A stretch of DNA of 64,000 nucleotides from Caenimonas soli (GTDB lineage Bacteria; Pseudomonadota; Gammaproteobacteria; Burkholderiales; Burkholderiaceae_C). Below are positions 7,779 to 62,715 of the stretch, in pieces (the first letter of the stretch is position 1; each line of letters starts with the position of its first letter). Location of the stretch: assembly GCF_013155545.1 (NCBI RefSeq), contig NZ_JABJVV010000024.1, positions 1 to 64,000 on the forward strand. Direction: 5' to 3'. The notes under the pieces are model-generated. The model saw only the letters and a list, made by a program, of their open reading frames with translations. It did no database searches and was not told the origin of the DNA. Made by a program: the position numbers and the translations under genes.

Positions 7779-7824
7779 ACTGTAGCCGTGAACCTGCCCG
7801 GGCTCAGTCCCCCCGCGGCGGTAC
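7779..7824 (-). promoter_or_regulatory. Promoter P1 with palindromic operator (motif I)
   Basis: Read on the minus strand: GTACCG, six bases, then GGGGAC, which runs into the -35 element CTGAGC (7807-7802). After exactly 17 bases comes the -10 element TACAGT (7784-7779), then five bases and the ATG of the hydrolase gene. The left half-site is degenerate (GTACCG against GTCCCC). The architecture matches seven other promoters of the window. Confidence 0.7.
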
Positions 7825-7859
7825 AGGTCGAGCGAGCCCCTCAGCCCCTTGAGGTGCTT

Positions 7860-9062
7860 TCAGGCAGGTTCGACGCGCAGCGGCAAGCGGTCCAGGATGC
7901 GCAAGGTGTTGATCGGCCGGTACGCCGGCTCGCCGGCCACGGTGATGGAGCGCACGCGCCGTGCCAGCGCACCGATCAGGCATTCGGCCTCCAGCCGCGC
8001 GATCATCTGGCCGATGCACAGGTGCGCGCCATGGCCGAAAGCCAGCTGTCCCCCCGCCGGCCGCCGCAAGTCGAACACATGGGCATCGGGCCACTTGCGC
8101 GGGTCGCGGTTGGCTGCACCCATGAAGGCCGCGATCTTGGTGCCGGGCTCCAGCACCATGCCGCTGAGTTCGGCGCCCTCGCAGGTGGTTCGGAACATCA
8201 CCTGCACCGGCGACTCGAAGCGGATCGCCTCCTCGAAAGCGTTGCGCGCAAGCGCGGGGTCGGCGCGCAGCAGCTCCCACTGCCCCGGGTCGCGCGCCAG
8301 CGCCTGCAGCGCGGCGCCGATGCCGCTGATGGTGGTGTCCATGCCGCCACGCAGGAAGGAGCGGGTCAGGTTGGCGGCGAAGCCCTTCTGCAAGGCACCC
8401 GCATCCTCAGCCTGATAGATCAGTTCGCCAAAGCCGCCGGGCAGCATCGCATCGCGCTTCATGCTGTCCTCATACCACTGCATGTAGGGCTGAGCGCGCG
8501 CCACGGCCGCCTGCGTCAATTCGTTGTTGGGGCCTATCGCATTGAAGTTCATGTCGCCGATGGCCTGGGCGTTTTCGCGCGGAATGTTGATGCCTACCGC
8601 CGGCGGAAACACCGATAGTACGAAGGCCTCGGCGGCGTCGCGCATACCGTCGAACTCGCGTTGGTCGACCAGGGCATCGGCCATTGCTTCGGCACGTGCC
8701 GAGAAGCGCTCGCGCCACTGCCGCACCACGATGGGCGACAGGATTTTTTGTAAGGCCGCGCGCACTTCGGTGTGCTGCGGCGGGTCGGACTCCAGGATGA
8801 CGCTGGCCGGCCGCCAGTTGCCGGGTTGGCGGATGTCTGCCAAGCCGGCGCCGCCGGTGTTGGTGAAGCGCTGCCATTGCGACAGCACGGTCGCCGTCTC
8901 CGCATGACGGCCGGTGGCGTAAATGCCGTAGCGCGCCAGCCGTACCACCGGCCCGGCTTCGCGCAGAGCTTCGAAGAAGGGGTATGGGTCGATCAGCGTT
9001 TCGGCCGTGAAGGGGTCGGTGTCGAGCACGGGCGGCTCGGCCAGCAAGGCGGCGGCGGTCAT
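7860..9062 (-). CDS. Cytochrome P450, CYP199-like
   Basis: This soluble bacterial P450 (400 residues from ATG 9062) has the heme-binding loop FGHGAHLCIG with Cys349, the K-helix EAIR (Glu278, Arg281) and an I-helix GGMDTT (239-244). It resembles CYP199A enzymes in AFEEAIRFESPVQ, GAANRDPRKW and the ending NTLR-x-LDRLP. CYP199A enzymes hydroxylate or demethylate para-substituted aromatic acids. The frame stays open to 9170 but the extra residues are not P450-like. A paralogue is at 54958. A [2Fe-2S] ferredoxin gene starts 129 bases away in the opposite direction and is a natural redox partner; no reductase is nearby. The substrate is inference only. Confidence 0.92.
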   Translation of the reverse strand: MTAAALLAEPPVLDTDPFTAETLIDPYPFFEALREAGPVVRLARYGIYATGRHAETATVLSQWQRFTNTGGAGLADIRQPGNWRPASVILESDPPQHTEVRAALQKILSPIVVRQWRERFSARAEAMADALVDQREFDGMRDAAEAFVLSVFPPAVGINIPRENAQAIGDMNFNAIGPNNELTQAAVARAQPYMQWYEDSMKRDAMLPGGFGELIYQAEDAGALQKGFAANLTRSFLRGGMDTTISGIGAALQALARDPGQWELLRADPALARNAFEEAIRFESPVQVMFRTTCEGAELSGMVLEPGTKIAAFMGAANRDPRKWPDAHVFDLRRPAGGQLAFGHGAHLCIGQMIARLEAECLIGALARRVRSITVAGEPAYRPINTLRILDRLPLRVEPA

Positions 9063-9116
9063 GGCGTCTCCGGAAGGTGAATGCGGCCAGTGTGCCCGCG
9101 CTCGGCGGGATCGGCC

Positions 9117-9162
9117 GTCCCCTGACGAGGGGACTGACACCAGGGCCGAGCCGACCGACAGT
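9117..9162 (+). promoter_or_regulatory. Promoter P2 with palindromic operator (motif I)
   Basis: This is a perfect GTCCCC-N6-GGGGAC palindrome (9117-9134). It overlaps the -35 element CTGACA (9134-9139), and GACAGT lies 17 bases further on as the -10. It drives the ferredoxin-SDR-MFS operon. Because the palindrome is symmetric and lies between divergent genes, it may also serve the leftward P450 gene, where a weak CACACT (9094-9089) lies at the equivalent distance. Confidence 0.8.
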
Positions 9163-9190
9163 GACGGCAAGAGAAGACCAAGGAGTCCCC

Positions 9191-9514
9191 ATGACCCAGG
9201 CCACCTACATCTGTACTGACGGTTCGCGCCGCGACGTCGACGTTGCCATTGGCTCCAACCTCATGCGCGCCGCCTGCGACAGCGGCATCGAAGGCATCGT
9301 CGGCGACTGCGGGGGTGCCATGAGCTGCGCCACCTGCCATGTGTTCGTGGAAGACCGCTTCCTCGATCGCCTCGGCGCGATGGAGCCCAACGAGGACCAG
9401 ATCCTCGATTTCACCGCCGCCGGGCGCCAGCCCAACAGCCGCCTGGCCTGCCAGATCGTGATGAACGAGCAGCTGGCCGGCATCGTGGTGCGCATCGCCG
9501 ACCCGCAAGTCTGA
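9191..9514 (+). CDS. [2Fe-2S] ferredoxin, adrenodoxin/palustrisredoxin type
   Basis: This is a 107-residue electron carrier for class I P450s. The cluster ligands are Cys40, Cys46 and Cys49 in GDCGGAMSCATCHVF, with Cys87 in SRLACQI. This spacing and the trailing PNSRL are those of the adrenodoxin/putidaredoxin group that serves P450s, as opposed to plant-type ferredoxins. ATG 9191 is preceded by AGGAG. The neighbouring divergent P450 is the obvious partner. A second ferredoxin of identical length and ligand positions is at 62316, and both end in VRIADPQ. No ferredoxin reductase gene is in the window. Confidence 0.95.
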   Translation: MTQATYICTDGSRRDVDVAIGSNLMRAACDSGIEGIVGDCGGAMSCATCHVFVEDRFLDRLGAMEPNEDQILDFTAAGRQPNSRLACQIVMNEQLAGIVVRIADPQV

Positions 9515-9539
9515 TTCCATCTTTTTCCAGGATCATTTC

Positions 9540-10373
9540 ATGACCACTCCCGCGCAGCCGGCCAGCTGGCTTCAGCTCGAAGACAAGGTCTGCGTCGTCA
9601 CCGGCGCGGCCGGCGGCATCGGCGCGGAGATCGCGCGCGAGTTCGCCGCCGTGGGCGCCAAGGTGGCGCTGCTGGACCGCGACGAAAAAGGCGCGATCGA
9701 GGTCGCGGCGGCAATCGCCGAAAGCGGCGCCGAGGCGATCGCGGTCGGCTGCGACATCACCGACAAGGCCAGCGTGGACCGGGCCGCCGAGGCGGTGGAG
9801 CGCGCCCTTGGGCGCTGCGACGTGCTGGTCAACAACGCCGCGGCGATCTACGCCGACGCGCTGATGAACATCGACCTGGCCAAATGGAACCAGCTGATGG
9901 CCGTCAACCTGGGCGGCTTCCTGCTGTGCTCGCAGGCCTTCGGGCGCCAGATGATTGCCGGGGGCGGCGGCAGCATGGTGCACGTCGCATCGATTTCCGG
10001 CCGGGTCCCGCAGCCCTACAGCGGCCCGTACAGCGTGAGCAAGGCGGGCGTGAAGATGCTGTCGCAATTGCTCGCGGTGGAGTTGGGAGAGCACGGCATC
10101 CGCAGCAACGTGGTCAGCCCCGCGATGGTCCGCACGCCGATGAGCGAAGTGATCTACCAGAACCTCGAGGTCCTGAAGAAGCGCGAGCAGATCGTGCCGG
10201 CCCGCCGCATCAGCGGCCCGCGCGATATCGCCGAGGTCGTGGTGTACCTGGCCAGTCCGCGCTCGGGTTACGTCAGCGGCCAGGACGTGCTGGTCGACGG
10301 CGGCCTGTCCACCGCGTGGCTCACGCTGATCCCGCGCCCCGGTTTCGAGAAGCAGGACGCGCAGCAGGCGTGA
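9540..10373 (+). CDS. Short-chain dehydrogenase/reductase
   Basis: This is a classical SDR of 277 residues. The cofactor motif is TGAAGGIG near residue 21, followed by NNAA. The catalytic Ser and Tyr-x3-Lys are in SISG and YSVSK, and the C-terminal GYVSGQDVLVDGG is present. The Asp after the second strand (LLDRD) suggests NAD(H). It lies 25 bases after the ferredoxin gene and overlaps the MFS gene by four bases, so it belongs to the P2 operon. The likely job is oxidation of the alcohol made by the P450. Confidence 0.92.
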   Translation: MTTPAQPASWLQLEDKVCVVTGAAGGIGAEIAREFAAVGAKVALLDRDEKGAIEVAAAIAESGAEAIAVGCDITDKASVDRAAEAVERALGRCDVLVNNAAAIYADALMNIDLAKWNQLMAVNLGGFLLCSQAFGRQMIAGGGGSMVHVASISGRVPQPYSGPYSVSKAGVKMLSQLLAVELGEHGIRSNVVSPAMVRTPMSEVIYQNLEVLKKREQIVPARRISGPRDIAEVVVYLASPRSGYVSGQDVLVDGGLSTAWLTLIPRPGFEKQDAQQA

Positions 10374-11584
10374 CCGCCGCCCTCCGGCCTTCCATGCTGC
10401 TGCCCCTGCTGGCGGCGTATTTCGGCAGCAGCGCGATGATGCGCGTGTGCGATCCCATGCTGCCGGCCCTGGCCAGCAACTTCAACGTGACCACCGGCCA
10501 AGCCGCCTTCACGGTGTCGTGCTACGCCATCGCCTACGGCCTGATGCAACTGGTCTTCGGCCCGCTCGGCGACCGCTGGGGCAAGCGCCGTGTGATTGGC
10601 TTTGCGGCGCTGGCCTGCGTGGCCGGCAACGTCGCAGCGCTCCTCGCCATGAGCCTGGAGATGTTGGTGACCGCACGCGTGCTGGCCGGCGCCGCGGCGG
10701 CCGGCATCATTCCGTTGGTGCTGGCCTGGATCGGCGACACCGTGCCCTATAAGGAGCGGCAAGCGGTGCTGGCGCGCTTCCTGAGCGCGTCGATCATGGG
10801 CATGATCGCCGGCCAGTGGGTTTCCGGCCTGCTCACGGACCTGTTCGGGTGGCGTACCGTGTTCGCCGCGCTGGCGCTGCTGTTCTGCGGCGCCGGCACC
10901 GTGATCTCACTGAATGCCGAAGTGCGCGGCGAATCGCCGCCCGCGCCTTCGGGCCGCGGGCACCTGCGCCAGATCGGCCATGTGCTGGGCCGCCCGTGGG
11001 CGCGTGTCATCCTTATCGCCGTCGCCTTCGAGGGCGCCTTCGCGTTCTCGGTGATGGCGTTTCTGCCCGCTTTTCTGGTTACCGAATTCGGACTTGGCAT
11101 CTCGTGGGCCGCCGCAGTGGTCGCCTTGTATGGCGTCGGCGGGATGGTGTATTCGTTCGCCGCCAAGCCTTTGCTCGCGCGCCTCGGCGAAGCGGGCCAG
11201 GCGCTGGCTGGCGGCGGCCTGTTGGGCCTGTCATGGGCGCTGCTGGTCTTGGTGCCGCTCTGGCAAACCGCAATGCCCGCCTGCATGCTGGCCGGCATCG
11301 GCTACTACATGCTGCACAACACGCTGACGACGCACGCGACGCAGATGGCTCCCGCGGTGCGCGGCACGGCCGTGGGCCTGTATGCGTCGGCGATGTTCAC
11401 CGGCATCTCCGCCGGCGTCGCGATCACCGCCCTGGGCGTGGACCGCATCGGCTACCGACCGCTGTTCCTGGTTTGCAGCGTCGGCCTGGCACTGTTGGGC
11501 GCTGTCTTCGCGTTCAGACTACGCCGCCGCGCCGCCATCAGCCCAATGGCAGCACCCGCTCAAAGGATCTCGAACACTTCGTAG
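10370..11584 (+). CDS. MFS transporter, DHA1-like
   Basis: This is a 12-helix major facilitator (404 residues) with motif A GPLGDRWGKRR after helix 2. The start is taken as GTG 10370, whose last two bases form the TGA stop of the SDR gene (GTGA overlap). This is the usual sign of translational coupling. ATG 10394 is an alternative that still keeps the first helix. Its 3' end overlaps the convergent DUF3237 gene by 25 bases. The position after a ferredoxin and an SDR suggests substrate uptake or efflux. Confidence 0.88.
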   Translation: MTAALRPSMLLPLLAAYFGSSAMMRVCDPMLPALASNFNVTTGQAAFTVSCYAIAYGLMQLVFGPLGDRWGKRRVIGFAALACVAGNVAALLAMSLEMLVTARVLAGAAAAGIIPLVLAWIGDTVPYKERQAVLARFLSASIMGMIAGQWVSGLLTDLFGWRTVFAALALLFCGAGTVISLNAEVRGESPPAPSGRGHLRQIGHVLGRPWARVILIAVAFEGAFAFSVMAFLPAFLVTEFGLGISWAAAVVALYGVGGMVYSFAAKPLLARLGEAGQALAGGGLLGLSWALLVLVPLWQTAMPACMLAGIGYYMLHNTLTTHATQMAPAVRGTAVGLYASAMFTGISAGVAITALGVDRIGYRPLFLVCSVGLALLGAVFAFRLRRRAAISPMAAPAQRISNTS

Positions 11585-12030: not shown

Positions 12031-12083
12031 GGAAGCGTTCGGGAATTGCGAGAGGTCATCATGGGTGTTCAGGGAATGGGGCG

Positions 12084-12888: not shown

Positions 12889-12894
12889 GGCCGC

Positions 12895-13845
12895 ATGAAA
12901 GCCATTGTCTCGACTCCCGACGGCGCCCGGCTGGCCGATGTGCCGGCGCCGCAGCCCCAACCCCATGAAATTCTGGTGCGCGTGAAAGCCGCGAGCCTGA
13001 ACCGTGCGGACCTGGCCGGGCTGGCGGCTAAGGACGGCAAGGTCATCGGGATGGAATGGGCCGGAGAAGTGATCGAGGCCGGTCCGCAAGCGGGGCCGTT
13101 CAAACCCGGCGACCGGGTCATGTGTACCGGCGCCGGCGCCTATGCTGAGTACGCCGTCACCGACGGCGGGCGCGCCTGCAAGATACCCGACGCGTCGCTG
13201 CCCTACGAAGAAGCGACCGTGCTCACGCTCGCGCTGCAGGCCATGCACGACGCGCTCGCCACGCAGGGGCAGCTCAAGCGTGGCGACGATGTACTGATCC
13301 ACGGCGCCAGCTCCGGCGTCGGCCTGATGGGTTTGCAGATCGCGCGCCTGCTGGGCGCGGGCAAGGTGATCGGCACGTCCACGCATGCCGCGCGGCGTGC
13401 GCGCCTGGGCGAGTTCGGCGCCGACCTGGCGCTCGACCCGTCGCAGCCCGGCTGGCACGAGCACATCCTGGAAGCCACCGCCGGCAAGGGCGTGGAAGTG
13501 ATCGTCGACCAGGTCACCGGCAAGCAATTCGCGCAGACCATGCAGACAGCCGCGATTGGCGGCCGCATCGTGAACCTCGGCCGCCTGGGCGGCGCCGGCG
13601 GCGACTTCGACTTCCAGTTGCACGCGCTGCGGCGCCTCACCTACATCGGCGTCACCTTCCGCACCCGCTCCGTCGAGGAAATCCGGGTGCTGAACGCGCG
13701 CATGCTGGCGGACCTGGGCCAGGCCATCGCGGAGCGCCGGTTGCGCCTGCCGATCGACAGCAGCTACCCGCTGGCCGATGCCGGCGCCGCGCTCGCACGG
13801 ATGAGCGCCAACGAGCATTTCGGGAAGATCGTGATCACGGTGTAG
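12895..13845 (+). CDS. Zinc-independent MDR oxidoreductase (quinone oxidoreductase-like)
   Basis: This 316-residue medium-chain dehydrogenase/reductase has a GroES-like N-terminal half and a Rossmann domain with HGASSGVGLMGLQIA (residues 137-150). The cysteine and histidine ligands of catalytic zinc are absent, so it is of the NADPH:quinone oxidoreductase or enoyl reductase kind. The start has no Shine-Dalgarno sequence, and the -10 element ends six bases before ATG, indicating a leaderless mRNA. The wrbA-like quinone reductase follows 24 bases downstream, so the pair may detoxify quinones made by the oxygenases or reduce an enone intermediate. Confidence 0.88.
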   Translation: MKAIVSTPDGARLADVPAPQPQPHEILVRVKAASLNRADLAGLAAKDGKVIGMEWAGEVIEAGPQAGPFKPGDRVMCTGAGAYAEYAVTDGGRACKIPDASLPYEEATVLTLALQAMHDALATQGQLKRGDDVLIHGASSGVGLMGLQIARLLGAGKVIGTSTHAARRARLGEFGADLALDPSQPGWHEHILEATAGKGVEVIVDQVTGKQFAQTMQTAAIGGRIVNLGRLGGAGGDFDFQLHALRRLTYIGVTFRTRSVEEIRVLNARMLADLGQAIAERRLRLPIDSSYPLADAGAALARMSANEHFGKIVITV

Positions 13846-13869
13846 CCCCTCCCTCAACACAACCTATTC

Positions 13870-14496
13870 ATGACCAAAGTCACCATCGTCTACTACAGCA
13901 GCACCGGCAACACCTGGGAGACCGCGCGCGCGATCGAGCAGGGCGCGCAACAGGCCGGGGCGCAGACGCGGCTGCGCAAGGTGCGCGAACTCGCCGGGCC
14001 GGAAACCATTACCGCCAAGCCGGCGTGGCAGGCGCACCTGGACGCGACGCGCAATGTGCCTGAGGCCACGCCGGCCGACATCGAATGGTGCGATGGCTAT
14101 GTGTTCGGCTCGCCCACGCGCTTCGGCCTGCCGGCCGCGCAGCTCAAACAGTTCATCGACACGCTGGGCCCACTCTGGGCGCAAGGCAAGCTGCAGGACA
14201 AGGCCGCGGGCGCATTTACCGGCGCGGGCAACCTGCATGGCGGCCAGGAGTCGACGCTGCTCGCGATGCACAACATGTTCTACCACTGGGGCTCGATCAT
14301 CGTGCCGGTGGGCTACACCGACGCGTCGGTGAAGGCGGCCGGCGGCAACCCCTACGGCACGAGTTTCAATGACGGCCGCGGCCAGCCCCTACCCGAGTTG
14401 GTCCTGGCAGCCGCTCGCCACCAGGGCGCTCGCATCGCGCGCTTCGCACAAATCCTGGCCGCCGCGCGCGAGCCGGAACCCGCCATGGCGGCCTGA
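13870..14496 (+). CDS. wrbA: NAD(P)H:quinone oxidoreductase, WrbA family
   Basis: This is a flavodoxin-fold FMN enzyme (208 residues) that reduces quinones by two electrons. It has the N-terminal phosphate-binding YYSSTGNTWETA, then GSPTRFGLPAAQLKQFIDTLG and LQDKAAGAFTGAGNLHGGQE, all WrbA signatures. It is co-directional with the MDR quinone oxidoreductase at 12895 and shares promoter P3. The 32 bases to the next stretch lack a terminator, so the IclR gene may be partly co-transcribed. A role in protecting cells from catechol- or hydroquinone-derived quinones fits. Confidence 0.92.
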   Translation: MTKVTIVYYSSTGNTWETARAIEQGAQQAGAQTRLRKVRELAGPETITAKPAWQAHLDATRNVPEATPADIEWCDGYVFGSPTRFGLPAAQLKQFIDTLGPLWAQGKLQDKAAGAFTGAGNLHGGQESTLLAMHNMFYHWGSIIVPVGYTDASVKAAGGNPYGTSFNDGRGQPLPELVLAAARHQGARIARFAQILAAAREPEPAMAA

Positions 14497-14551
14497 GTCA
14501 TGCTAGGCTCGCGCCGCCGGGGTTCGACAGCCCGCGGCACTGGAGTAGTCC

Positions 14552-15382
14552 ATGGTGCAAGCTCGCGAAGATGATGCGATGAGCGACGAAGGCGGCAACG
14601 GCGACGACGATGCAGGCGGGGTGCAGGCGGTGGACACGGCCGTGCGCGTGCTCTCGGCGCTGATCGACATGGGCGCACCGCTGATGCTCAAGACTGTGGC
14701 CGAGCGCGCCGACATGCAGCCGCCCAAGGCGCACCGCTACCTGGTGAGCTTCTGCCGCAGCGGCCTGGCCGAACGGGATGCGGCGACCGGTGGTTACCGG
14801 TTGGGACCACTCGCCGTGCGGTTGGGACTGGCCGCGCTGAGGCACCTCAACGTGGTGCAGGTGGCATCACCCACGCTGGCGACGCTGCGCGACGAACTCG
14901 GCTTCACGGCCGGCCTGGCGGTGTGGGGCGGCGCCGGCCCGACCTTTGTCCGCTTCGAGGAGACCAACGATGCGCTCATCATCAGCGGCCGCCCCGGCTC
15001 CGTGATGCCGCTGCTCACGTCTTCTACCGGCCGCGTGTTCGGCGCCTACCTGCCGCGTTCGGTCACTGAACCCTACATTCGCAAGGAACTGGCGGGCACG
15101 CCGCATCCCGGTGCCACACCCTCCAACCGGAAGATAGAACTGGACGAGGTGGAAACCCTGTTCGAGGGCGTGCGTCAACACAAACTCGCGCAGGTCCGGG
15201 GCGACGTCAATCCGGGCCTGCATGGCCTGTCCGCCCCCATCCTCGACCACGCCGGTGCGATCGTCGGCGTGCTGACCGTGATGGGGTCGGCCGGTTTGAT
15301 CAACACCGACCTGGACGGGCCCATCGCGGCCACGTTGTCAGCGCGCGCCGAAGAGGTTTCACGACGGATGGGCTGGGCCTGA
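14552..15382 (+). CDS. IclR family transcriptional regulator
   Basis: This 276-residue regulator has a winged helix at about residues 25-90 (VQAVDTAVRVLSALIDMG, then LKTVAERADMQPPKAHRYL). An IclR effector domain follows, with the characteristic SSTGRVFGAYLP and NPGLHGLSAPILDHAGAIVGVLTVMG. ATG 14552 has GGAG seven bases upstream and is preferred over the internal ATG 14579. IclR proteins commonly control aromatic acid and acyl-CoA pathways as repressors or activators. It is a candidate for the GTCCCC palindromes of the outer blocks, in competition with the LuxR-type protein encoded next to it. Confidence 0.93.
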   Translation: MVQAREDDAMSDEGGNGDDDAGGVQAVDTAVRVLSALIDMGAPLMLKTVAERADMQPPKAHRYLVSFCRSGLAERDAATGGYRLGPLAVRLGLAALRHLNVVQVASPTLATLRDELGFTAGLAVWGGAGPTFVRFEETNDALIISGRPGSVMPLLTSSTGRVFGAYLPRSVTEPYIRKELAGTPHPGATPSNRKIELDEVETLFEGVRQHKLAQVRGDVNPGLHGLSAPILDHAGAIVGVLTVMGSAGLINTDLDGPIAATLSARAEEVSRRMGWA

Positions 15383-15426
15383 ACCTGCCGCCCGTCGGAA
15401 GTACGGGTTTTCCCCAGTCTCTAGAA

Positions 15427-15443
15427 ATTACGTTAAGCGTAAT
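15427..15443. promoter_or_regulatory. AT-rich palindrome upstream of the LuxR-type gene, putative operator
   Basis: ATTACG-N5-CGTAAT is a perfect 17-base dyad, with 6-base arms, in an unusually AT-rich patch of an otherwise very GC-rich region. A second imperfect dyad, CCGTT (15450-15454) with AACGG (15467-15471), lies just downstream and encloses a -10-like GATATT (15459-15464). Neither resembles the two operator families elsewhere in the window. They may control expression of the LuxR-type gene 88 bases downstream. Confidence 0.5.
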
Positions 15444-15531
15444 CTGATTCCGTTATCGGATATTCCAACGGACCCATCGAGTCCGAGCCGGGGAGGGCCT
15501 CGCAGCCCCAAGCATCTCAGGAGACAAGCAC

Positions 15532-17025: not shown

Positions 17026-17030
17026 CGACC

Positions 17031-18815: not shown

Positions 18816-18833
18816 ACGAAGAGAGGACTCTCA

Positions 18834-50435: not shown

Positions 50436-50437
50436 AG

Positions 50438-54449: not shown

Positions 54450-54476
54450 GCCCATTTTTTTCATCGAGACAAAACC

Positions 54477-54932
54477 ATGCGATTCCCGAGACTGCCGGTC
54501 GACGACGAACTGGAGATCCGCTCCCTCTTTGCGCGCTACGGCCACCTGGCCGATGCCGGCGACCCGCTGTTCGTCGAGCTGTTCACGCCCGATGCCACCT
54601 GGACCCGCGAGAACTCGCCGCCCGCCTCGATGGGCGGTTCGGGCCTGCCGCGCGAGACCATGCGCGGCCGCGAGGTGCTGGGCAAGCTGATGGTGGATGT
54701 GATGCAGAAGAAGTTCCGCCAGCGCATGCACCACCAGTTCACCGATTTCTACGTCGAACCGGGCGAGAACGCCGACGACGCGGTGGGCCACGCTCGCGCT
54801 CTGATCACCGACTGGCGCGAAGGCCCCGGCAAGTTCGCCATGTTCGGCCACTATGACCTGCGGTTTCGCCGCACCGCCGACGGCTGGCGCATCTGCGACG
54901 CCTCTGTCTATGTGCTGCCCGACGGCAAATGA
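54477..54932 (+). CDS. SnoaL/NTF2-like protein
   Basis: This is a 151-residue cone-shaped alpha+beta barrel of the SnoaL-like 4 type. It opens LPVDDELEIRSLFARYGHLAD, followed by LFTPDATWTRE and a late HYDLRFRRTADGWRICD. Such proteins act as isomerases, cyclases, hydratases or small ligand-binding proteins in steroid, polyketide and terpenoid pathways. It lies between two P450 genes in the P6 operon, so it probably handles a P450 product. No specific activity can be assigned. Confidence 0.88.
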   Translation: MRFPRLPVDDELEIRSLFARYGHLADAGDPLFVELFTPDATWTRENSPPASMGGSGLPRETMRGREVLGKLMVDVMQKKFRQRMHHQFTDFYVEPGENADDAVGHARALITDWREGPGKFAMFGHYDLRFRRTADGWRICDASVYVLPDGK

Positions 54933-54957
54933 ATCGCCCCCAACAACAGGAGAAGCC

Positions 54958-56166
54958 ATGACCGCCACGCTAGCCCAAGCCGCGCCCGATGCGCCGGTGC
55001 TCGACGAAGACCCGTTTTCAGACGAGAACATCGCCAATCCCTACCCTTTCTTCGTGCGCCTGCGCGAAATGGCGCCCGCCGTCTTCATCCAGCCCCATAG
55101 CTATTACGCGGTGGGCCGGCACGAGGAGGCCGGTATCGTTGCCAGTGACTACGCGCGCTTCAGCACGACCGGAGGCGTCGGCCTGAGCGACATCCGCAAG
55201 CCCGGCGCCTGGCGGCCGCGCAGCCCGATCACCGAGATCGACCCGCCGGACCACACCCGGGTGCGCGCCGCCCTGCAGAAAATCCTGTCGCCGCTGGTGG
55301 TCAAGACCTGGCGCGACAAGTTCGCCCAGCGCGCCGAAGAAGTGGCCGAGCGCGCGGTGGCAAAGGGCCGTGTCGATGGCGTGGCCGACATTTCGGAAGC
55401 GTTCGTGCTGCAGGCCTTCCCCGAAGTTCTGGGTGTCGACGTGCCGCCCGAGCGCATCAAGCAGACCGGCGAGCTCAACTTCAACCAGCTCGGGCCGAAC
55501 AACGAGCGGCTGAAACGCGCCACGGAGCGGACGGCGCCGATCATGGAGTGGTACGCGCAGGTGCTGCAGCGCGAGTACATGCTGCCCGGTGGCTTCGGCG
55601 AGAAGATCTACCTGGCGGAGGATGCGGGCGAGTTCGACCCCGGCACGGCGGCGCCGCATGTGCGCACCTTTTTCCGCGCCGGCGTGGACACCACGATGGC
55701 CGGCATCGGATCGACATTGAAGCTGCTGTCGGAGAACCCGGGCCAGTTCGCGCTGGTCAAGGCCGATCCGGCCCGGATCAAGGGCGCTTTCGAGGAGGCA
55801 CTGCGCATGGAATCGCCGGCGCAAGTGATGTTCCGGGTCACGACGGCCGATACTGTACTGGGCGGCGTGAAGCTGCGCGCCGACACCAAGGTGGGCTACC
55901 ACATGGGCGCCGCCAACCGCGATCCGCGCCAGTGGCCCGACCCTGACCGCTTCGACGTGACCCGCCAGACCACGGGTGTGCACCGTTCATTCGGTTTTGG
56001 CGCCCATGTCTGCATCGGACAGATGATCGCGCGGCTCGAAGCAGAAAGCATCCTGGGCGCGATCATCCGGCGTGTTCGCGCGATCGAGCCGGATGGCAAG
56101 GCGGAATGGCGGCCGGTAAATACACTGCGCACCCTGGATAGCCTGCCGTTGCAGCTGCGAACCTAG
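54958..56166 (+). CDS. Cytochrome P450, CYP199-like
   Basis: This is a 402-residue P450 closely related to the one at 7860 throughout, including the shared LQKILSP(L/I)VV, the MLPGGFGE and FGxGAHxCIGQMIARLEAE blocks. The heme cysteine is Cys352 in FGFGAHVCIG, the I-helix has RAGVDTT, and the K-helix is EEALR. AGGAG precedes ATG 54958. Two related CYP199-like enzymes under the same operator family may attack successive positions or different substrates of one class, such as para-substituted aromatic acids. Confidence 0.93.
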   Translation: MTATLAQAAPDAPVLDEDPFSDENIANPYPFFVRLREMAPAVFIQPHSYYAVGRHEEAGIVASDYARFSTTGGVGLSDIRKPGAWRPRSPITEIDPPDHTRVRAALQKILSPLVVKTWRDKFAQRAEEVAERAVAKGRVDGVADISEAFVLQAFPEVLGVDVPPERIKQTGELNFNQLGPNNERLKRATERTAPIMEWYAQVLQREYMLPGGFGEKIYLAEDAGEFDPGTAAPHVRTFFRAGVDTTMAGIGSTLKLLSENPGQFALVKADPARIKGAFEEALRMESPAQVMFRVTTADTVLGGVKLRADTKVGYHMGAANRDPRQWPDPDRFDVTRQTTGVHRSFGFGAHVCIGQMIARLEAESILGAIIRRVRAIEPDGKAEWRPVNTLRTLDSLPLQLRT

Positions 56167-57420: not shown

Positions 57421-57457
57421 AGGCAGTCATCCCGGGCTTGACCCGGGATCCATGCCT
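57421..57457. terminator. REP-like hairpin between convergent genes
   Basis: ATCCCGGG (57429-57436) and CCCGGGAT (57442-57449) form a perfect eight-base stem around a CTTGA loop. The outer AGGCA (57421-57425) also pairs with TGCCT (57453-57457). The core 57426-57454 is the third copy of the REP-like unit seen at 390-459. It overlaps the last bases of the leftward SDR gene and probably ends transcripts from both sides. Confidence 0.7.
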
Positions 57458-58241
57458 AGGCCGTCATTCCGCCGTCGACGTTGTACACACCACCCGTGAT
57501 GAAGCTGGCCTGCGGCCCCAGCAGCCAGAGCACCAGGTTGGCCACTTCGTCGGCAGTGGCGGCACGGCCCAGGGGCTGGTTGGCGAAGTGCTGCTTCAGC
57601 GCGAGCTCGACTTCCTCCTCGCTGCGGCCATCAATGCGGAAAGTACTGCGCAATAAGGGCGTGTCAATCGGACCGGGGCAAATCACGTTGATGCGGATGC
57701 CATGCGGCGCGAACTCCAGCGCGGCCTGCTGCGTCATGCGGATCACGGCCGCCTTGGAAGCGCCGTAGACACCCAGGCCGGCATCGGCGCGGCTGCTGCG
57801 CTGGCCGGAGACCGACGAGGTGTTGACCATGACGCCGCCGCCCTGCGCGCGCATCACTTTGCCCACGGCCTGCATTCCCAGCAGGACACCACGAACATTG
57901 ATGGCGAAGATTCGCTCGAAGTCCGCCATGCTGAAATCCAGCAGCGGGCCCTGCGGCCCGACGATGGCGGCGTTGTTGTGGAACAGGTCGACGCGGCCGA
58001 AGCGCTGCACCACGGCATTCGTGTAGCGCTGGACATCCGCCTCATTCGCCACGTCCGCCTGGACTGCAAAGGCGCGGGCGGGGTCCAACCCGCTCATCCC
58101 CCGGTCCAGCGACAGCGCATCGCGGTCCACGATAGCGACCTTCGCGCCCGCCGCCAGCAGCTGGCGCACCAGGGCCAGCCCGACCCCGCTCGCCCCGCCG
58201 GTGACGACGGCGACTTTACCCTCGAACTCCGCCGCGCTCAT
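57456..58241 (-). CDS. Short-chain dehydrogenase/reductase
   Basis: This is a classical SDR of 261 residues with TGGASGVG, NNAA (residues 90-93) and YGASK, and the ending ASFITGGVYNVDGGMT. The Asp of IVDRD suggests NAD(H). It overlaps the upstream P450 gene by four bases and is the last gene of the leftward P8 operon. It probably oxidises the alcohol formed by that P450. Confidence 0.92.
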   Translation of the reverse strand: MSAAEFEGKVAVVTGGASGVGLALVRQLLAAGAKVAIVDRDALSLDRGMSGLDPARAFAVQADVANEADVQRYTNAVVQRFGRVDLFHNNAAIVGPQGPLLDFSMADFERIFAINVRGVLLGMQAVGKVMRAQGGGVMVNTSSVSGQRSSRADAGLGVYGASKAAVIRMTQQAALEFAPHGIRINVICPGPIDTPLLRSTFRIDGRSEEEVELALKQHFANQPLGRAATADEVANLVLWLLGPQASFITGGVYNVDGGMTA

Positions 58242-59512
58242 TGCAGCACCACCGGCAGTGCGCTGGGTGCGCGGAACACGAAGGTGTGCATGTGCCTGGC
58301 CTCGTCAGGTTGGGCGAGCTTCATCTTGGGGAAGCGCTTGGCGAATTCCTCGAACACGATCTTCATCTCCAGCCGCGCCAGCGGCGCGCCCAGGCAGAAG
58401 TGCACGCCATTGCCGAAAGTAAGCTGCTTGCGCGCGTTCTTGCGGCGGATATCGAAACGGTGCGGGTTCTCGAACACGTCCTCGTCGCGGTTGGCGGACG
58501 CGAACGACAGCATGATTCTTGCGCCGGCAGGGATCTTGACGCCTCGGAATTCGACGTCTTCCAGCGCGGTACGCCGCCAGCCGATCACCGCACCCGCATA
58601 GCGCATGCCCTCTTCCACCGTGTTCGCGGCCAGCGACGGGTCGGCGCACAGCGCTTGCCACTGGTCCGGGTTTTGCAGCAGCGTACGGAAGGTGTTGGTG
58701 AGCTGGTTGGTTGTGGTCTCGTGGCCGGCGAAGGCGACGCCGAAGGTGTGGTTGGTGGCCTCGCCCAGGCTCATGACCGAATCGTCGCCGTTACGAATGG
58801 CCAGGATGCGGCTGGTGAAGTCGTCGCGCGGATTCTTCAGGCGGTCGTGGACCATGGCGCTGCAGTATTGCCAATACGCCACCATGTTCTTCGCGCCGAC
58901 GATCTGCTGCTCATAGGTTGACGGGCTGAAGTCGATCACGCTACGCATACCCGCCCACTTCTTGACATGGGGAATGTCGGCTTCGGGGATACCCAGCAGC
59001 TTGAACACCACCCGGGCCGGCAGCTCGTAGTTCACGTCGCGCAGCAGGTCGACATCGTCCTTGCCGTCGATGCGATCCATGGCCTCGGCCACAAGCGAGC
59101 GGATATGCGGCTCGAGCTTGATGAAGTCGCGCAGATTCAGCACTTGGCCCGTCACTCCGCGGATGCGCCTGTGCACGTCGCCGTCCAGACTGGAATGGGC
59201 GCCGGTTGGCGCATAGCCCCCCTCCTTCAGGATGGCCAGGGCATCCGGGTGCATGGGCGTGACCGGCAGCGAGGTGTTGCGCGCCGAGAAACGCTGGCCG
59301 TCATGCAGCACCGCGTACACGTCTTCGTATCTGGTGAGGACCCAGTAGCCGATCTCTTCGGACCAGAACACCGGTTCATGCCGGCGCTGCTGCTCCAGCG
59401 CGGCATGCAGCTCGGGTCGGTAGTAGGGCTTGAAGCTCTCGGCGGCGGTGCTGGCCGCGTCGACAGCGCCCGCCGCATGGAAGGGACAGCCTGTGATGGT
59501 GTTCATATCCAT
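58238..59512 (-). CDS. Cytochrome P450
   Basis: This is a 424-residue P450. The heme loop is FGNGVHFCLG with Cys373, the I-helix FAGHETTTN and the K-helix EEGMR. ATG 59512 is used; the second Met two codons later is possible. It lies in one operon with a ferredoxin, a VOC protein, DUF3237 and three SDRs. Four P450s with two ferredoxins in the window point to sequential oxidations of one carbon skeleton. Confidence 0.92.
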   Translation of the reverse strand: MDMNTITGCPFHAAGAVDAASTAAESFKPYYRPELHAALEQQRRHEPVFWSEEIGYWVLTRYEDVYAVLHDGQRFSARNTSLPVTPMHPDALAILKEGGYAPTGAHSSLDGDVHRRIRGVTGQVLNLRDFIKLEPHIRSLVAEAMDRIDGKDDVDLLRDVNYELPARVVFKLLGIPEADIPHVKKWAGMRSVIDFSPSTYEQQIVGAKNMVAYWQYCSAMVHDRLKNPRDDFTSRILAIRNGDDSVMSLGEATNHTFGVAFAGHETTTNQLTNTFRTLLQNPDQWQALCADPSLAANTVEEGMRYAGAVIGWRRTALEDVEFRGVKIPAGARIMLSFASANRDEDVFENPHRFDIRRKNARKQLTFGNGVHFCLGAPLARLEMKIVFEEFAKRFPKMKLAQPDEARHMHTFVFRAPSALPVVLQ

Positions 59513-59516
59513 TTCT

Positions 59517-60290
59517 TTAGCGCATCAACATGCCGCCGTTGACATCCAGCGTCGAGCCGGTAACGAAAGCTCCACCGGGCGAAACCAGATAGGAAACGGC
59601 GGCGGCGATTTCCTCGGGCAGGCCGATGCGGCCGAGCGGCACGGCGGCGGTGCCCAGGTATTTCTGGTCGCCGTGGCCGGGGGCCACGGTCTGGTGCAGC
59701 ATCGGTGTGTCGATCGGTCCCGGCGCGATGGTGTTGACGGTGATGCCCAGCGGCGCGGCTTCGCGCGCGGCCACCTTGGACAGCGCGAGCACGGCACCCT
59801 TGGACGCGCTGTAGGCCGCACCACTTTGCATGCCGCCCATCTGGCCCGCCAGCGAAGCGACGGTGACGATGCGGCCCTGCGCTACTGGCGTGGAGCCGGC
59901 GCGGCGCAGCATCTCGCGCACGCAGATGAATGTGCCGCCGGCGTTGACCTGCATCACGCGATCCCACTCCTGCAGCGTGATGTCGACCGTGGGCAGGCGC
60001 CCGGGCGTTGGGTTGCTGCTGAGGATTCCGGCGAAGCAGACGAGCACCGTGACGGCGCCCACGCGCTCTTGCACGGTATCGAACGCGGCGTGCACGTTGG
60101 CTTCGTCGGTCACGTCGCAACGCAACCCGATATGGCCCTTGCCGGGCAGGCTGTGCGCCGCGAAAGCGGCGCTGTCCGCGTTGAGGTCGGCGATGGCGAC
60201 GGCCAGGCCGTCCTCGGCCAGCCGCCGCGCGCTGGCCAGGCCGAGCCCGCTGGCGCCGCCGGTGATGAGTGCAACACGCATGGGATCCAT
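59517..60290 (-). CDS. Short-chain dehydrogenase/reductase with altered NNAG motif
   Basis: This is a 257-residue SDR with TGGASGLG and the catalytic YSASK. The structural NNAG motif is replaced by CFAG (in TVLVCFAGILSSN). The ending AFVTGSTLDVNGGML is intact. Loss of the first Asn pair is unusual and could affect cofactor binding or stability. It starts 17 bases after the previous SDR and ends four bases before the P450 gene. ATG 60281 is an alternative start. Confidence 0.88.
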   Translation of the reverse strand: MDPMRVALITGGASGLGLASARRLAEDGLAVAIADLNADSAAFAAHSLPGKGHIGLRCDVTDEANVHAAFDTVQERVGAVTVLVCFAGILSSNPTPGRLPTVDITLQEWDRVMQVNAGGTFICVREMLRRAGSTPVAQGRIVTVASLAGQMGGMQSGAAYSASKGAVLALSKVAAREAAPLGITVNTIAPGPIDTPMLHQTVAPGHGDQKYLGTAAVPLGRIGLPEEIAAAVSYLVSPGGAFVTGSTLDVNGGMLMR

Positions 60291-60307
60291 CCGTCTTTAA
60301 AAGGGAT

Positions 60308-61096
60308 TCACTGGTCAGGGTGGGCGTCCACCCAGCACTGCACCAGCGGGTTGCTGATATAGGCGCTGGTGGTCTGGCCGCCGTCCACCGCCAGCACCTG
60401 GCCGGTCACGAAACCTGCGTCGTCGCTGCACAGGAAGGCCGCGGCGCCCGCGATCTCCTCGGGCCGGCCCGGCCGACCCATCGGTGTGGTGCCCACGATG
60501 GTGGCGTAGAAGCGCGCCGTGTTCAGCCGGTCCGTGGTCTGCGGCGTGGCGATGATTCCGGGGGCGATTGCGTTGACGCGCAAGCCCTGGTCCGCGTAGT
60601 CGGCCGCGAGGTTGCGGGTGAGGCCGATCACGCCTGCCTTGGCCATCGAGTACACGGCCTGGCGGCGATAGCCGACTACCCCCAGCGAAGAGGCAATGTT
60701 GAGCACGACGCCCTGGGCCTTGACCAGCTCGGAGAGGGCCGCGCGCGTGATCATGAAGGTGGTCTTGAGATTGATGTCCAGCCACTTGTCGTAGTCGGCA
60801 TCGCTGGTCTCGTGGAACGGCGGGCAGTTGCCCAGCCCCGCATTGTTGACCAGCACGCGCACGCCGCCGAAGTAGCCTATGCAGGCCTGCACGATGCGCG
60901 CGGCCGCGTCGACGGCCGTGACGTCCTGCACCAGCGTGCGCAGCGTACCCGAAGCCGGTAGCGATTGCAGCGATCCGGCGTGGATGTCCACCGCCAGCAC
61001 CTTCGCGCCCTCTTCGTGCAGTCGTAAAGCAATCGCGCGGCCGATGCCGGAGCCGGCGGCGGTGACGATGGCGGGCCGGCCCTCAAAGCGCAGCAT
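60308..61096 (-). CDS. Short-chain dehydrogenase/reductase
   Basis: This is a 262-residue SDR with TAAGSGIG (Ala in place of the usual first Gly), NNAG and YSMAK, ending GFVTGQVLAVDGGQTTSAY. It is a close paralogue of the SDR at 48937 in the central block. It probably acts on a hydroxylated intermediate of the P8 pathway. It lies 58 bases after the DUF3237 gene. Confidence 0.9.
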   Translation of the reverse strand: MLRFEGRPAIVTAAGSGIGRAIALRLHEEGAKVLAVDIHAGSLQSLPASGTLRTLVQDVTAVDAAARIVQACIGYFGGVRVLVNNAGLGNCPPFHETSDADYDKWLDINLKTTFMITRAALSELVKAQGVVLNIASSLGVVGYRRQAVYSMAKAGVIGLTRNLAADYADQGLRVNAIAPGIIATPQTTDRLNTARFYATIVGTTPMGRPGRPEEIAGAAAFLCSDDAGFVTGQVLAVDGGQTTSAYISNPLVQCWVDAHPDQ

Positions 61097-61154
61097 CAGG
61101 AAACCTCCGTGCTGCGCACTGCGGTGCTATGAGCCTTGGGAGCGGCCCGGCGTC

Positions 61155-61622
61155 TCATATCACTTCCCAGATGTCGTACACCGGGCCATTGGGCTCACGC
61201 GTTCCGGTGCCGACGGCGACCTTGTCGTTGAGCCATTTCAGCGCGGGCGCCGCGGTCTCGAACTGCACCAGCACACGGAAGTAGTCCGCGCCCTGGGGGA
61301 TGGGCTCGCGGTTGACGATCTTGCGCATGATCTCGGGCGTGGGCCCGTTGCGCCGGCCGTTGTAGGTCATATAGATCAGCTCGCCGGCCTCGGTTTCCAG
61401 CATGAGGCGAACGTCCAGGTGCAGGCCGCCGTCCGGACGCTCCAGCACCACGTCGGCGCCGCCCGGCAACACCTTGCCGCGCAAGCGCTCGCCTTCGAAC
61501 CGCCCACCGCTGACGCACATCACGCGCCGGGTGTAGCCATGCGGCACGGCGCCCACCAGCTGGGGCGGCGCGTCTACTTCCGCCTTGATGGTGAACAGGG
61601 GTTTCAGCTCGATCGGCGTCAT
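61155..61622 (-). CDS. DUF3237 family protein
   Basis: This is a 155-residue paralogue of the protein at 11560. It shares the Gly-rich core GGRFEGERLRGKVLPGGADV, the DVRLMLETEAGELIYMTYNG segment and the WLNDKVAVGTG ending. The function is unknown. It starts seven bases after the VOC gene, so the two are probably co-translated. Both DUF3237 genes of the window lie near a ferredoxin and SDR genes, which argues for a role in the oxygenase pathway. Confidence 0.87.
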   Translation of the reverse strand: MTPIELKPLFTIKAEVDAPPQLVGAVPHGYTRRVMCVSGGRFEGERLRGKVLPGGADVVLERPDGGLHLDVRLMLETEAGELIYMTYNGRRNGPTPEIMRKIVNREPIPQGADYFRVLVQFETAAPALKWLNDKVAVGTGTREPNGPVYDIWEVI

Positions 61623-61629
61623 GGTGTCC

Positions 61630-62256
61630 TTAGTCGTAGCGCTTGCGCATGTTCGTGATCATTTCGACGAGGGCCGTGGGCACGTCCTTGCCTTCGTTCT
61701 TGGCCTTTTCCTTGCAATCGACCCACTGCTTCAGGTCGGCGTAGCCCTTGTCGGTGTGGCGGTTCCACTCGTGGTCCAGTGGCGTAGTGATCTCCAGGCG
61801 GATGCCGGCGGGATCGTGGAAATAGATCGACAGGATCATGCCCTTGTGGTCCGTCGGGCCCACCACCGGGATGTCGTTGAGCAGCAGCCACTCGTGCCAC
61901 TTCATCACTTCGGCGCGGTCCTTGGCCTGAAGTGCGATGTGGTTGAAGATGTCATAGGCCGGGTGCGTGGACTTGGCCTGCGCCGGCACGCCCGGCGCCT
62001 CGAAGAAGGCCAACGTGGAGCCGTCGCCCATGCGAAAGAAAATGTGGAAGTACGGAATCTGGTCGCCGGTGGACGGCACATGGTCGTCGACCACGGTGCT
62101 GGCGATTTCCATGCCCATGATGCGGGTGTAGAACTCGGTGGTCGCGGCAACATCGTGCGTCACCCATGCCGCGTGGTTCAGCATCATCGGCGTGAGGCCG
62201 GGGTTGGCGGGCTTGCCGCTGGCGGTGCGCAGCGTGCTGGGGGCGGTTGCTTGCAT
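61630..62256 (-). CDS. VOC family protein, extradiol dioxygenase-like
   Basis: This is a 208-residue protein with two VOC modules. His28 (LNHAAWVTHD), His106 (FNHIALQ) and Glu155 (GIRLEITTP) are placed like the 2-His-1-carboxylate iron site of extradiol ring-cleavage dioxygenases. The C-terminal 45 residues are charged and helical. It would cleave a catechol-like ring formed by the hydroxylases of the region. It is shorter than typical biphenyl-diol dioxygenases (about 290 residues), so another VOC activity cannot be excluded. ATG 62256 has GGAG upstream. Confidence 0.78.
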   Translation of the reverse strand: MQATAPSTLRTASGKPANPGLTPMMLNHAAWVTHDVAATTEFYTRIMGMEIASTVVDDHVPSTGDQIPYFHIFFRMGDGSTLAFFEAPGVPAQAKSTHPAYDIFNHIALQAKDRAEVMKWHEWLLLNDIPVVGPTDHKGMILSIYFHDPAGIRLEITTPLDHEWNRHTDKGYADLKQWVDCKEKAKNEGKDVPTALVEMITNMRKRYD

Positions 62257-62315
62257 TGGGGTACTCCGTGGGAAATCCGGTGGATGGGTGATGTCTGTTC
62301 GGGCGGGGTGCGGCG

Positions 62316-62639
62316 TCAAAGCTGCGGGTCGGCAATGCGCACCGTGATTCCGTCCAGCGCATCGGTCATTGCGATCTGGCAGGACAGCCGGCTGTTGGGC
62401 TGGCGGTCCGCCGCGGTGTAGTCGAGCATCTGGTCTTCGGTGTCGGCGGGCGGGGGCAGCAGGCCTGCGAAAGCGGGCTCCACGAACACGTGGCAGGTGG
62501 CGCAGCTCATGACGCCGCCGCAGTCGCCGACGATGCCGTCGAGGCCATGACCGGTGGCGGCCATCATGAGGCTCGTGCCGACGGGCACCTCGACTTCGGA
62601 GCGTTCGCCGCTGGGATGGATATAAATGGCACGGGGCAT
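62316..62639 (-). CDS. [2Fe-2S] ferredoxin, adrenodoxin/palustrisredoxin type
   Basis: This is a 107-residue ferredoxin with ligands Cys40, Cys46, Cys49 (GDCGGVMSCATCHVF) and Cys87 (SRLSCQI). These positions are identical to the ferredoxin at 9191, and it has the same VRIADPQ ending. It is the first gene of the P8 operon, which includes a P450. It probably feeds that P450 and perhaps those at 53178 and 54958. A reductase must come from elsewhere in the genome. Confidence 0.95.
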   Translation of the reverse strand: MPRAIYIHPSGERSEVEVPVGTSLMMAATGHGLDGIVGDCGGVMSCATCHVFVEPAFAGLLPPPADTEDQMLDYTAADRQPNSRLSCQIAMTDALDGITVRIADPQL

Positions 62640-62670
62640 GAGCTATGCAGTGTTCGTTGCTGTTGATTCA

Positions 62671-62715
62671 AATATCGGCCATGAGCCGCGCCGCGTCAGT
62701 CCCCGTTGGGGGGAC
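62671..62715 (-). promoter_or_regulatory. Promoter P8 with palindromic operator (motif I)
   Basis: On the minus strand GTCCCC-N5-GGGGAC (62715-62699) leads into -35 CTGACG (62699-62694). The -10 GATATT (62676-62671) follows after 17 bases. It fills the gap between the stop of livM and the ferredoxin start and gives a leader of about 25 bases. Confidence 0.8.

What the first reader, a model, noticed from the sequence alone, without database searches (positions are those of the whole stretch)
7779..62715. A family of eight near-identical promoters: GTCCCC palindrome fused to the -35 element, constant 17-base spacing
GTCCCC-N5/6-GGGGAC followed by TGAC (or TGAG/ATAC) occurs at 7824-7802 (-), 9117-9138, 12843-12864, 16396-16417, 53079-53058 (-), 53094-53114, 56186-56207 and 62715-62695 (-). 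In every case the last C of the palindrome begins a -35 hexamer and a -10-like hexamer lies exactly 17 bases downstream, always directed at a gene. The sites are intergenic and correctly oriented in all eight cases. They control the hydrolase-ligase-thiolase, ferredoxin, quinone reductase, hemerythrin-monooxygenase, livHMGF, P450, binding-protein and ferredoxin-SDR-P450 units, so they define one regulon. Operator adjacency to -35 (centre near -43) fits class II activation. I know of no described regulon with this box, but I could not search.
Basis: seen in the sequence. Interest (0 to 1): 0.88.

Follow-up and report, generated by a model that had tools for sequence, protein, structure and literature searches.

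The report
LuxR-type regulator's 13-promoter catabolic regulon
A bacterium related to Ramlibacter appears to switch on a large gene cluster for breaking down complex organic molecules through one repeated DNA switch, placed at the same distance from the start point of about a dozen transcription units, and the likely protein that reads it is encoded in the cluster itself.

Summary
All eight sites exist, are intergenic and face a gene. Five have perfect arms, three are degenerate, one (16396) has a non-canonical -10. Exact palindromes: 5 in the window, none in 100 shuffles; 7 in the 5.64 Mb genome, 6 of them on this 77.9 kb contig. A matrix built from other genomes finds 13 promoters on the contig and none of 14 bits or more in 400 kb of other contigs.

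The geometry holds in relatives: 36 of 47 tailed palindromes from other genomes carry NANNNT at exactly 17 bp, at most 3 of 47 at 14 other offsets. In 27 of 63 promoters the ATG follows the -10 after exactly 6 bases, so many transcripts should be leaderless.

The box tracks the LuxR-type protein at 15532-16389: among 399 family genomes the two with it (E<=1e-40) are the only two with more than one box. IclR orthologues are missing from two box-bearing genomes. The sensor domain models as an acyl-homoserine-lactone-binding fold.

Best reading: a pathway-specific class II LuxR-type regulon, a new member of a known kind. Binding, inducer and substrate are inferred. A similar box occurs elsewhere without this protein.

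The parts
7779..7824 (-). Degenerate box GTACCG-N6-GGGGAC + TGAG (7824-7807), 17-bp spacer, -10 TACAGT (7784-7779); ATG of the hydrolase gene 5 nt after the -10 (predicted leaderless)
   Evidence: 22.5 bits; orthologous leaderless site in L045
9117..9162 (+). Perfect box (9117-9134) + TGAC, -10 GACAGT (9157-9162), drives ferredoxin-SDR-MFS unit (9191 onward), leadered
   Evidence: 33.4 bits; sites at the orthologous ferredoxin in L040, L042, L057
9089..9134 (-). Divergent use of the same palindrome: tail GGCC, -10 CACACT (9094-9089) towards the P450 gene 7860-9062
   Evidence: 19.4 bits; CACACT at the same offset in L040 and L042
12843..12888 (+). Degenerate box GTCCCA-N6-GGGGGC + ATAC, -10 TATGCT (12883-12888); ATG of the quinone reductase gene 6 nt on (predicted leaderless); the unit 12895-16389 includes the IclR and LuxR genes (autoregulation, inferred)
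   Evidence: a similarly degenerate GTCCC[AG]...GGGGGC-ATAC form is present in L040-L044, L046 and L057, in L046 with the -10 one base further on
16396..16441 (+). Perfect box + TGAC, extended -10 TGC-GCCAAT (16436-16441), drives hemerythrin, FAD monooxygenase and TctC genes
53034..53079 (-). Box with one mismatch (53079-53062) + ATAC, -10 TATCCT (53039-53034); ATG of livH-type permease 6 nt on (predicted leaderless)
   Evidence: ATG 6 or 7 nt after the -10 at 7 of 7 livH sites found, own genome included
53094..53138 (+). Perfect N5 box + TGAC, -10 TAGTCT (53133-53138), drives P450-SnoaL-P450 unit
   Evidence: 31.1 bits
56186..56231 (+). Perfect box + TGAC, -10 GATACT (56226-56231), drives periplasmic binding protein 56288-57418
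   Evidence: 34.7 bits
62671..62715 (-). Perfect N5 box (62715-62699) + TGAC, -10 GATATT (62676-62671), drives ferredoxin-VOC-DUF3237-SDR-P450 unit
   Evidence: 34.6 bits
15532..16389 (+). LuxR-type regulator, 285 aa: N-terminal AHL-binding-type fold (model), C-terminal GerE HTH; favoured reader of the box
14552..15382 (+). IclR-type regulator, rival candidate or co-regulator
39263..42067 (+). MalT-like LuxR regulator (934 aa) inside a 30-kb block without boxes; considered and disfavoured as reader of the box
2605..7773 (-). Target unit: alpha/beta hydrolase, CoA ligase, MFS, thiolase
7860..9062 (-). Target: cytochrome P450 (divergent promoter)
9191..11584 (+). Target unit: ferredoxin, SDR, MFS
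12895..16389 (+). Target unit: quinone reductase, FMN reductase, IclR, LuxR
16465..19817 (+). Target unit: hemerythrin, FAD monooxygenase, TctC binding protein
49719..53027 (-). Target unit: branched-chain-type ABC transporter (first gene a permease, last an ATPase; the two between were not scanned)
53268..56166 (+). Target unit: P450, SnoaL-like, P450
56288..57418 (+). Target: periplasmic binding protein
57456..62639 (-). Target unit: ferredoxin, VOC, DUF3237, three SDRs, P450

Best explanation
The sites are operators of one pathway-specific regulon. A dimer of the LuxR-type protein encoded at 15532-16389 binds GTCCCC-N5/6-GGGGAC centred at -43/-43.5, overlapping the -35 (CTGAC/CAGAC/CATAC), and contacts RNA polymerase as a class II activator; sigma-70 then uses a fixed 17-bp spacer and a (T/G)AnAnT -10 or an extended -10. 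The N-terminal domain has the fold of acyl-homoserine-lactone-binding domains and probably binds a substrate or intermediate of the pathway, so that P450s, ferredoxins, dehydrogenases, hydrolase/ligase/thiolase and ABC/MFS transporters are induced together; the regulator genes sit in a target unit, giving feedback. In relatives nearly half of the promoters put the predicted start on or next to the A of the ATG (leaderless), on this contig 3 of 13. Shown from sequence: site positions, cluster restriction, geometry, conservation, ATG register, co-occurrence with the regulator. Inferred: binding, activation, inducer, autoregulation, and the substrate, for which only a loose resemblance to steroid/terpenoid catabolic genes exists.
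Against: The IclR gene sits next to the LuxR gene in 8 of the 10 other box-bearing genomes or records, so co-occurrence does not fully separate them. Ramlibacter terrae (57%) has no hit of 9 bits or more at its locus, only a degenerate palindrome. A Bradyrhizobium homologue (48%) has 4 exact palindromes in its genome, none with the layout. Box promoters without this LuxR exist: G395 has three of 23.9-28.7 bits around a NarL-type response regulator and G148 one of 28.9 bits. In Sphingobium (46%) near-matches are no more frequent than in shuffles. 15 of 60 palindromes in other genomes fall inside called genes; 9 of these have tail and -10, where the caller's start is probably too early, 6 have neither. 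The family-wide protein searches scored only 6 first-look candidates a genome. The half-site spacing varies (5 or 6), unusual for a rigid dimer. Nothing here measures binding or expression.
Confidence: 0.78

Rival explanations
1. The IclR-type protein (14552-15382) is the reader of the box, as activator or repressor, and the LuxR-type protein does something else.
For: It is adjacent to the LuxR gene, in the same target unit, and 73-83% identical near-full-length orthologues occur in 7 of 9 other box-bearing genomes searched, with an adjacent annotated IclR gene in V. paradoxus VAI-C.
Against: In G461 (a MAG, completeness not told) there is no IclR match at E<=1e-30 and in G407 (100% complete) only a 39% relative, yet both have boxes with the 17-bp -10; two genomes with an HTH-only LuxR relative also carry a box (IclR was not searched there). 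IclR-orthologue distribution in the 399 genomes was not run.
Confidence: 0.1
2. Compatible with the best reading: LuxR activates at the box and IclR is a ligand-sensing modulator at another site or of the same unit.
For: Conserved IclR-LuxR gene order in most relatives.
Against: No second conserved site was looked for; box genomes without an IclR orthologue exist.
Confidence: 0.3
3. The MalT-like LuxR regulator (39263-42067) reads the box (MalT boxes contain GGGGA, recalled).
For: In the same cluster; GerE domain and MalT-type TPR region; a 65% relative in G407.
Against: No match at E<=1e-30 in G453, G454, G459 and G461, all with boxes; only matches of 37% identity or less in G455, G456 and G458. 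No matrix hit of 12 bits or more in its 30-kb block.
Confidence: 0.03
4. The palindromes are repetitive elements (REP-type) or chance in GC-rich DNA, not operators.
For: Exact palindromes without tail or -10 also occur inside genes, e.g. GTCCCCGATGTCGGGGAC or its complement in several genomes.
Against: 6 of 7 on one contig; fixed -10 and ATG register; sites accompany orthologous genes in rearranged loci.
Confidence: 0.02

Closest known systems
LuxR quorum-sensing activators and LuxR solos (LuxR, TraR, LasR, QscR, VqsR)
   Same: Two-domain layout, GerE HTH, AHL-binding-domain fold by model; class II site overlapping the -35 as in lux-box promoters (recalled).
   Different: Too distant in sequence for the Pfam autoinducer-binding model; box has GTCCCC/GGGGAC arms, 17-18 bp; sits in a catabolic regulon. 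PMC10134790 (passages seen) names the residues of AHL receptors and of plant-responsive solos; the words Variovorax, Comamonadaceae and Burkholderiales do not occur in its main text.
DevR/DosR and OsdR (NarL-type GerE regulators)
   Same: GerE regulators with GC-rich palindromes; PMC5069765 (passages seen) lists a predicted OsdR site GGGGACGATCGTCCCC.
   Different: There the half-sites face outward (GGGGAC...GTCCCC), here inward; receiver domain instead of an AHL-type domain (recalled); dormancy, not catabolism.
CrbR acs promoters in Pseudomonas
   Same: GerE-type response regulator (type recalled) acting through an imperfect palindrome upstream of promoters of acetate-use genes (PMC5715377, passages seen).
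   Different: The motif differs in sequence (its table lists e.g. TTTGACCATAGTCGGGT).
Unnamed NarL-type regulator in G395 (L121)
   Same: Three promoters with GTCCCC-AAAACT-GGGGAC-AGAC type boxes and a -10 at 17 bp.
   Different: Receiver domain; 33% identity over 42 residues of the HTH; other gene content.

Membership tests
GerE/LuxR HTH superfamily | PF00196 domain above cut-off | tested here: met
   39.7 bits against a cut-off of 23.5, residues 207-260
Quorum-sensing-type LuxR / LuxR solo | Autoinducer-binding domain (PF03472, number recalled) by sequence | tested here: not met
   Only GerE and a weak sigma-70 region 4 hit at E<=1e-3
Quorum-sensing-type LuxR / LuxR solo | AHL-binding-domain fold | tested here: met
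Quorum-sensing-type LuxR / LuxR solo | Nine conserved residues (W57 Y61 D70 P71 W85 G113, E178 L182 G188 in TraR; PMC10134790) | tested here: inconclusive
   By gap-free counting only: Y80, D89, P90, E212 and G222 fit and are invariant in 24 homologues; W57 and L182 appear replaced; no residue alignment to TraR was made
LuxR solo | No luxI in the genome | tested here: inconclusive
   No PF00765 match, but none of 14 control genomes rang either
Class II activator-dependent sigma-70 promoters | Operator overlapping the -35 at about -42 | tested here: met
   Centre -43/-43.5 from the 17-bp spacer and the ATG register
Class II activator-dependent sigma-70 promoters | Regulator-dependent activation | not testable with these tools
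   needs expression data
Leaderless transcripts | Start point at the first base of the start codon | tested here: inconclusive
   Predicted from the -10/ATG register, 27 of 63 at exactly 6 nt; mapped starts are not available
MalT-type regulon | MalT-like regulator present in the box genomes | tested here: not met
   no match at E<=1e-30 in four box genomes

The most novel reading that the evidence does not exclude
A previously undescribed family of LuxR-type regulators with an AHL-receptor-like sensor domain was recruited from signalling to catabolism, and it runs a whole degradative cluster through one operator type in a rigid class II layout in which, across species, nearly half of the promoters are leaderless and one palindrome can fire both ways; the same operator is read by relatives with other sensor parts (HTH-only in Diaphorobacter-type genomes, perhaps receiver-type in G395).
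Probability: 0.45. Interest if true: 0.65.

Novelty: new member of a known kind. Interest (0 to 1): 0.5.

Why it matters
It gives a complete, testable regulon (operator, promoters, start points, candidate regulator) for an uncharacterised catabolic cluster shared by Ramlibacter, Rhodoferax and Variovorax, with named strains such as Variovorax paradoxus VAI-C. It links an AHL-receptor-type fold to a degradation pathway, offers a promoter set with a fixed layout that is probably ligand-inducible, and supplies a natural series of leadered and leaderless versions of the same promoters for studying leaderless translation.

Tried and rejected
Considered and rejected: REP-type repeats or chance; the MalT-like regulator; the idea that every box genome must carry a relative of this LuxR (contradicted at E<=1e-8 by G395, G148, G042 and G269; of these four, only G395 and G148 have a hit with a fitting -10, G269 scores 14.4 bits and G042 under 14).

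Extension to Alphaproteobacteria is only suggestive: in two Sphingobium plasmids near-boxes lie upstream of the hydrolase, VOC and two P450 genes, but the count of near-matches on one of them equals that in shuffles (6 against a mean of 5.95). Same genes without the box: at the alpha/beta-hydrolase loci of Variovorax sp. PBL-E5 and Neorhizobium petrolearium no hit of 9 bits or more was found, one without and one with a 27% LuxR relative.

Substrate assignment was not reached: KstD-like, BaiCD-like, ChsH2-like and P450 matches suggest a polycyclic or terpenoid compound; no row shown reaches its NCBIfam cut-off. Paper searches for abscisic acid catabolism and for terpenoid/steroid regulons listed no match to this cluster. 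The two off-contig hits of the mismatch search at C1 and C48 score below 12 bits in the promoter matrix. A second HTH relative in the own genome (C7) has no hit above 10.8 bits nearby. The luxI search was uninformative.

Matrix caveat: its sites were selected by right arm, tail and NANNNT, with tails first seen in the window, so its scores on the other genomes are circular; the scores on contig C17 and on the 400 kb come from sequences not used to build it.

Rows set aside: 14 orientations (deep-genic or Bradyrhizobium) are tabulated apart; one search printed 73 of 100 candidates, those with NANNNT at 17 bp. G044=G458, G437=G454 and G452=G460 are the same genomes reached twice (same coordinates) and count once; L114 and G018:C2 are the same plasmid by length and sequence.
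Full report
What was checked. All eight sites were read from the sequence. Five have perfect arms and a TGAC tail; 53079(-), 12843(+) and 7824(-) are degenerate. None lies within a called gene, and each faces one. The palindrome GTCCCC-N5/6-GGGGAC occurs 5 times in the window and never in 100 dinucleotide-preserving shuffles; with TGAC also 5 times and never in shuffles. In the whole 5.64 Mb genome it occurs 7 times, 6 of them on this contig; the pattern read backwards occurs 2 times. The window is bases 1-64000 of a 77,927-base contig. The genus is probably Ramlibacter: handle G452, same genus as the window's genome, and G460, reached through the named locus L048 (Ramlibacter terrae CP053418.1), give identical coordinates.

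The regulon is larger than reported. Sites beyond the window at 66247(-), 66276(+) and 74010(+) have the same layout; 73993(-) is a weaker one with TTTACT as -10. The 9117 palindrome also has a -10 on its other side (CACACT, 9094-9089) towards the P450 gene, with the same hexamer in L040 and L042. A matrix built from 63 promoters of other genomes gives 13 promoters on this contig at 17.3 to 34.7 bits; the best hit in 20 stretches of 20 kb from other contigs is 12.5 bits. The 30-kb block from 19923 to 49695 has no hit of 12 bits or more.

Independent test of the geometry. Relatives of the LuxR-type gene were found in 11 loci of named genomes, the genomes behind them and one more were searched for palindromes, further stretches were fetched, and every exact palindrome was taken regardless of tail or -10. 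Of 60 palindromes outside this genome, 47 have a TGAC, AGAC or ATAC tail on one side. At 17 bp from the implied -35, 36 of 47 show NANNNT; at 14 other offsets the count is 0 to 3; over 29 other offsets it is 36 of 1363. Of the 11 exceptions, 6 have TGC followed by NNCAAT, an extended -10: 5 upstream of the hemerythrin orthologue and 1 upstream of a P450 orthologue; a TG at that place occurs in 7 of the 11 exceptions and in 1 of the 36 others. The own 16396 site is of that type. Two of the 47 are in Bradyrhizobium and lack the layout. 15 of the 60 palindromes lie inside called genes: 9 of these have both tail and -10, which suggests gene starts called too early, and 6 have neither.

Leaderless register. 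In the broader set of 63 promoters from other genomes an ATG starts exactly 6 bases after the -10 in 27 and 7 bases after in 5; every other offset from 0 to 30 has at most 5. With an open frame of 80 codons or more required, 30 of 63 have the ATG 5 to 7 bases on. The ATG is the start of the orthologous protein for livH (7 of 7 sites, own included, 6 or 7 bases), quinone reductase (5 of 5 assigned, own included, 6 or 7 bases) and the 62639-type ferredoxin (7 of 10). In the window this holds for 12843 and 53079 (6 bases) and 7824 (5 bases); the own ferredoxin promoters are leadered while several orthologues are not. Leaderless transcripts are known in Burkholderia cenocepacia (PMC4603805, passages: the start of 72 genes, some of them tRNAs, exactly at the start codon) and Cupriavidus metallidurans (PMC7563307, passages: 4.67% of primary starts), so the kind is known; its density here would be unusual.

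Which regulator. Of 399 family genomes two have the LuxR-type protein at E<=1e-40, and only the same two have more than one box with a WGAC tail, five each; six others have one (Fisher p 1.3e-5). The family searches scored 6 first-look candidates a genome, so misses are possible. With a looser limit, two of those six (G018, G300) carry an HTH-only relative, 51-53% identical; four (G042, G395, G269, G148) do not, and three sister genomes without box do not. In the genus, 4 of 60 genomes have the protein: this one, G437=G454 and G407 with boxes, G452=G460 (R. terrae) without. IclR orthologues were not found in G461 and G407, which have boxes with the -10; the MalT-like regulator was not found in four box genomes. 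The HTH stretch SEETVKTYRKRAYQRL is almost unchanged over 24 homologues down to 66% identity, in keeping with an unchanged operator. Limits: IclR is usually adjacent, and homologues at 57% (R. terrae) and 48% (Bradyrhizobium) lack recognisable promoters at their loci.

Complication. G395 has three promoters with a very similar box, tail and 17-bp -10 around a NarL-type response regulator (with a 61% paralogue nearby) and an ABC binding protein, and no relative of the window's LuxR at E<=1e-8. So the operator layout is not exclusive to one protein; convergent or shared GerE specificity is possible.

Literature. Searches for the box and for this cluster listed no paper describing it; these are listings from an open-licence library, so absence from print is not shown. 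Verdict: a real, well-defined regulon; new member of a known kind, with unusual promoter economy.

Noticed in passing
L121 (G395:C7:12000-22000), sites 417(-), 5017(-), 5838(-): Very similar boxes with a -10 at 17 bp around a NarL-type response regulator (5070-5753) and an ABC binding protein; a 61% paralogue of the regulator lies nearby. Probably a separate regulon with almost the same operator.
   Followed up: partly
L118 (G300) and L119 = L114 (G018, Diaphorobacter sp. HDW4B plasmid): One box GTCCCC-(C)TTGAT-GGGGACTGAC upstream of a porin gene, with an HTH-only LuxR relative about 7-9 kb away next to a VOC-type gene, and in HDW4B also the alpha/beta-hydrolase gene.
   Followed up: partly
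L123 5036(-) (G148): A 28.9-bit box upstream of a protein with an IPTL-CTERM motif, in a genome without a relative of the window's LuxR.
   Followed up: partly
G000:C7:103888-104211 (L124): Second LuxR HTH in the same genome, 53% identical to residues 163-268 of the window's protein, without a box nearby.
   Followed up: partly
window 11560-11802 (-): 80-aa open frame matching only the C-terminal half of DUF3237, perhaps a truncated copy of the family found whole at 61155-61622.
   Followed up: no
window 19923-49695: 30-kb block with beta-oxidation genes, a second ABC transporter and a MalT-like regulator but no box: perhaps a separately controlled module.
   Followed up: no
L039 9771 (G000:C49), L065, L079, L091: GTCCCCGATGTCGGGGAC (or its complement) recurs in several genomes, inside called genes in L065, L079 and L091; it is the one exact palindrome off the contig here and gives no matrix hit of 12 bits or more.
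   Followed up: partly
L057 35044-35853 (Variovorax paradoxus VAI-C plasmid): An aadA aminoglycoside resistance gene is annotated about 14 kb from the cluster's regulator on this plasmid record.
   Followed up: no
L113, L058 (Sphingobium plasmids pMI1, pTK2): A 46% LuxR homologue stands divergent to a hydrolase-thiolase operon with P450 and ferredoxin genes, with leuCD-like and HMG-CoA lyase genes nearby; near-boxes upstream of four units.
   Followed up: partly
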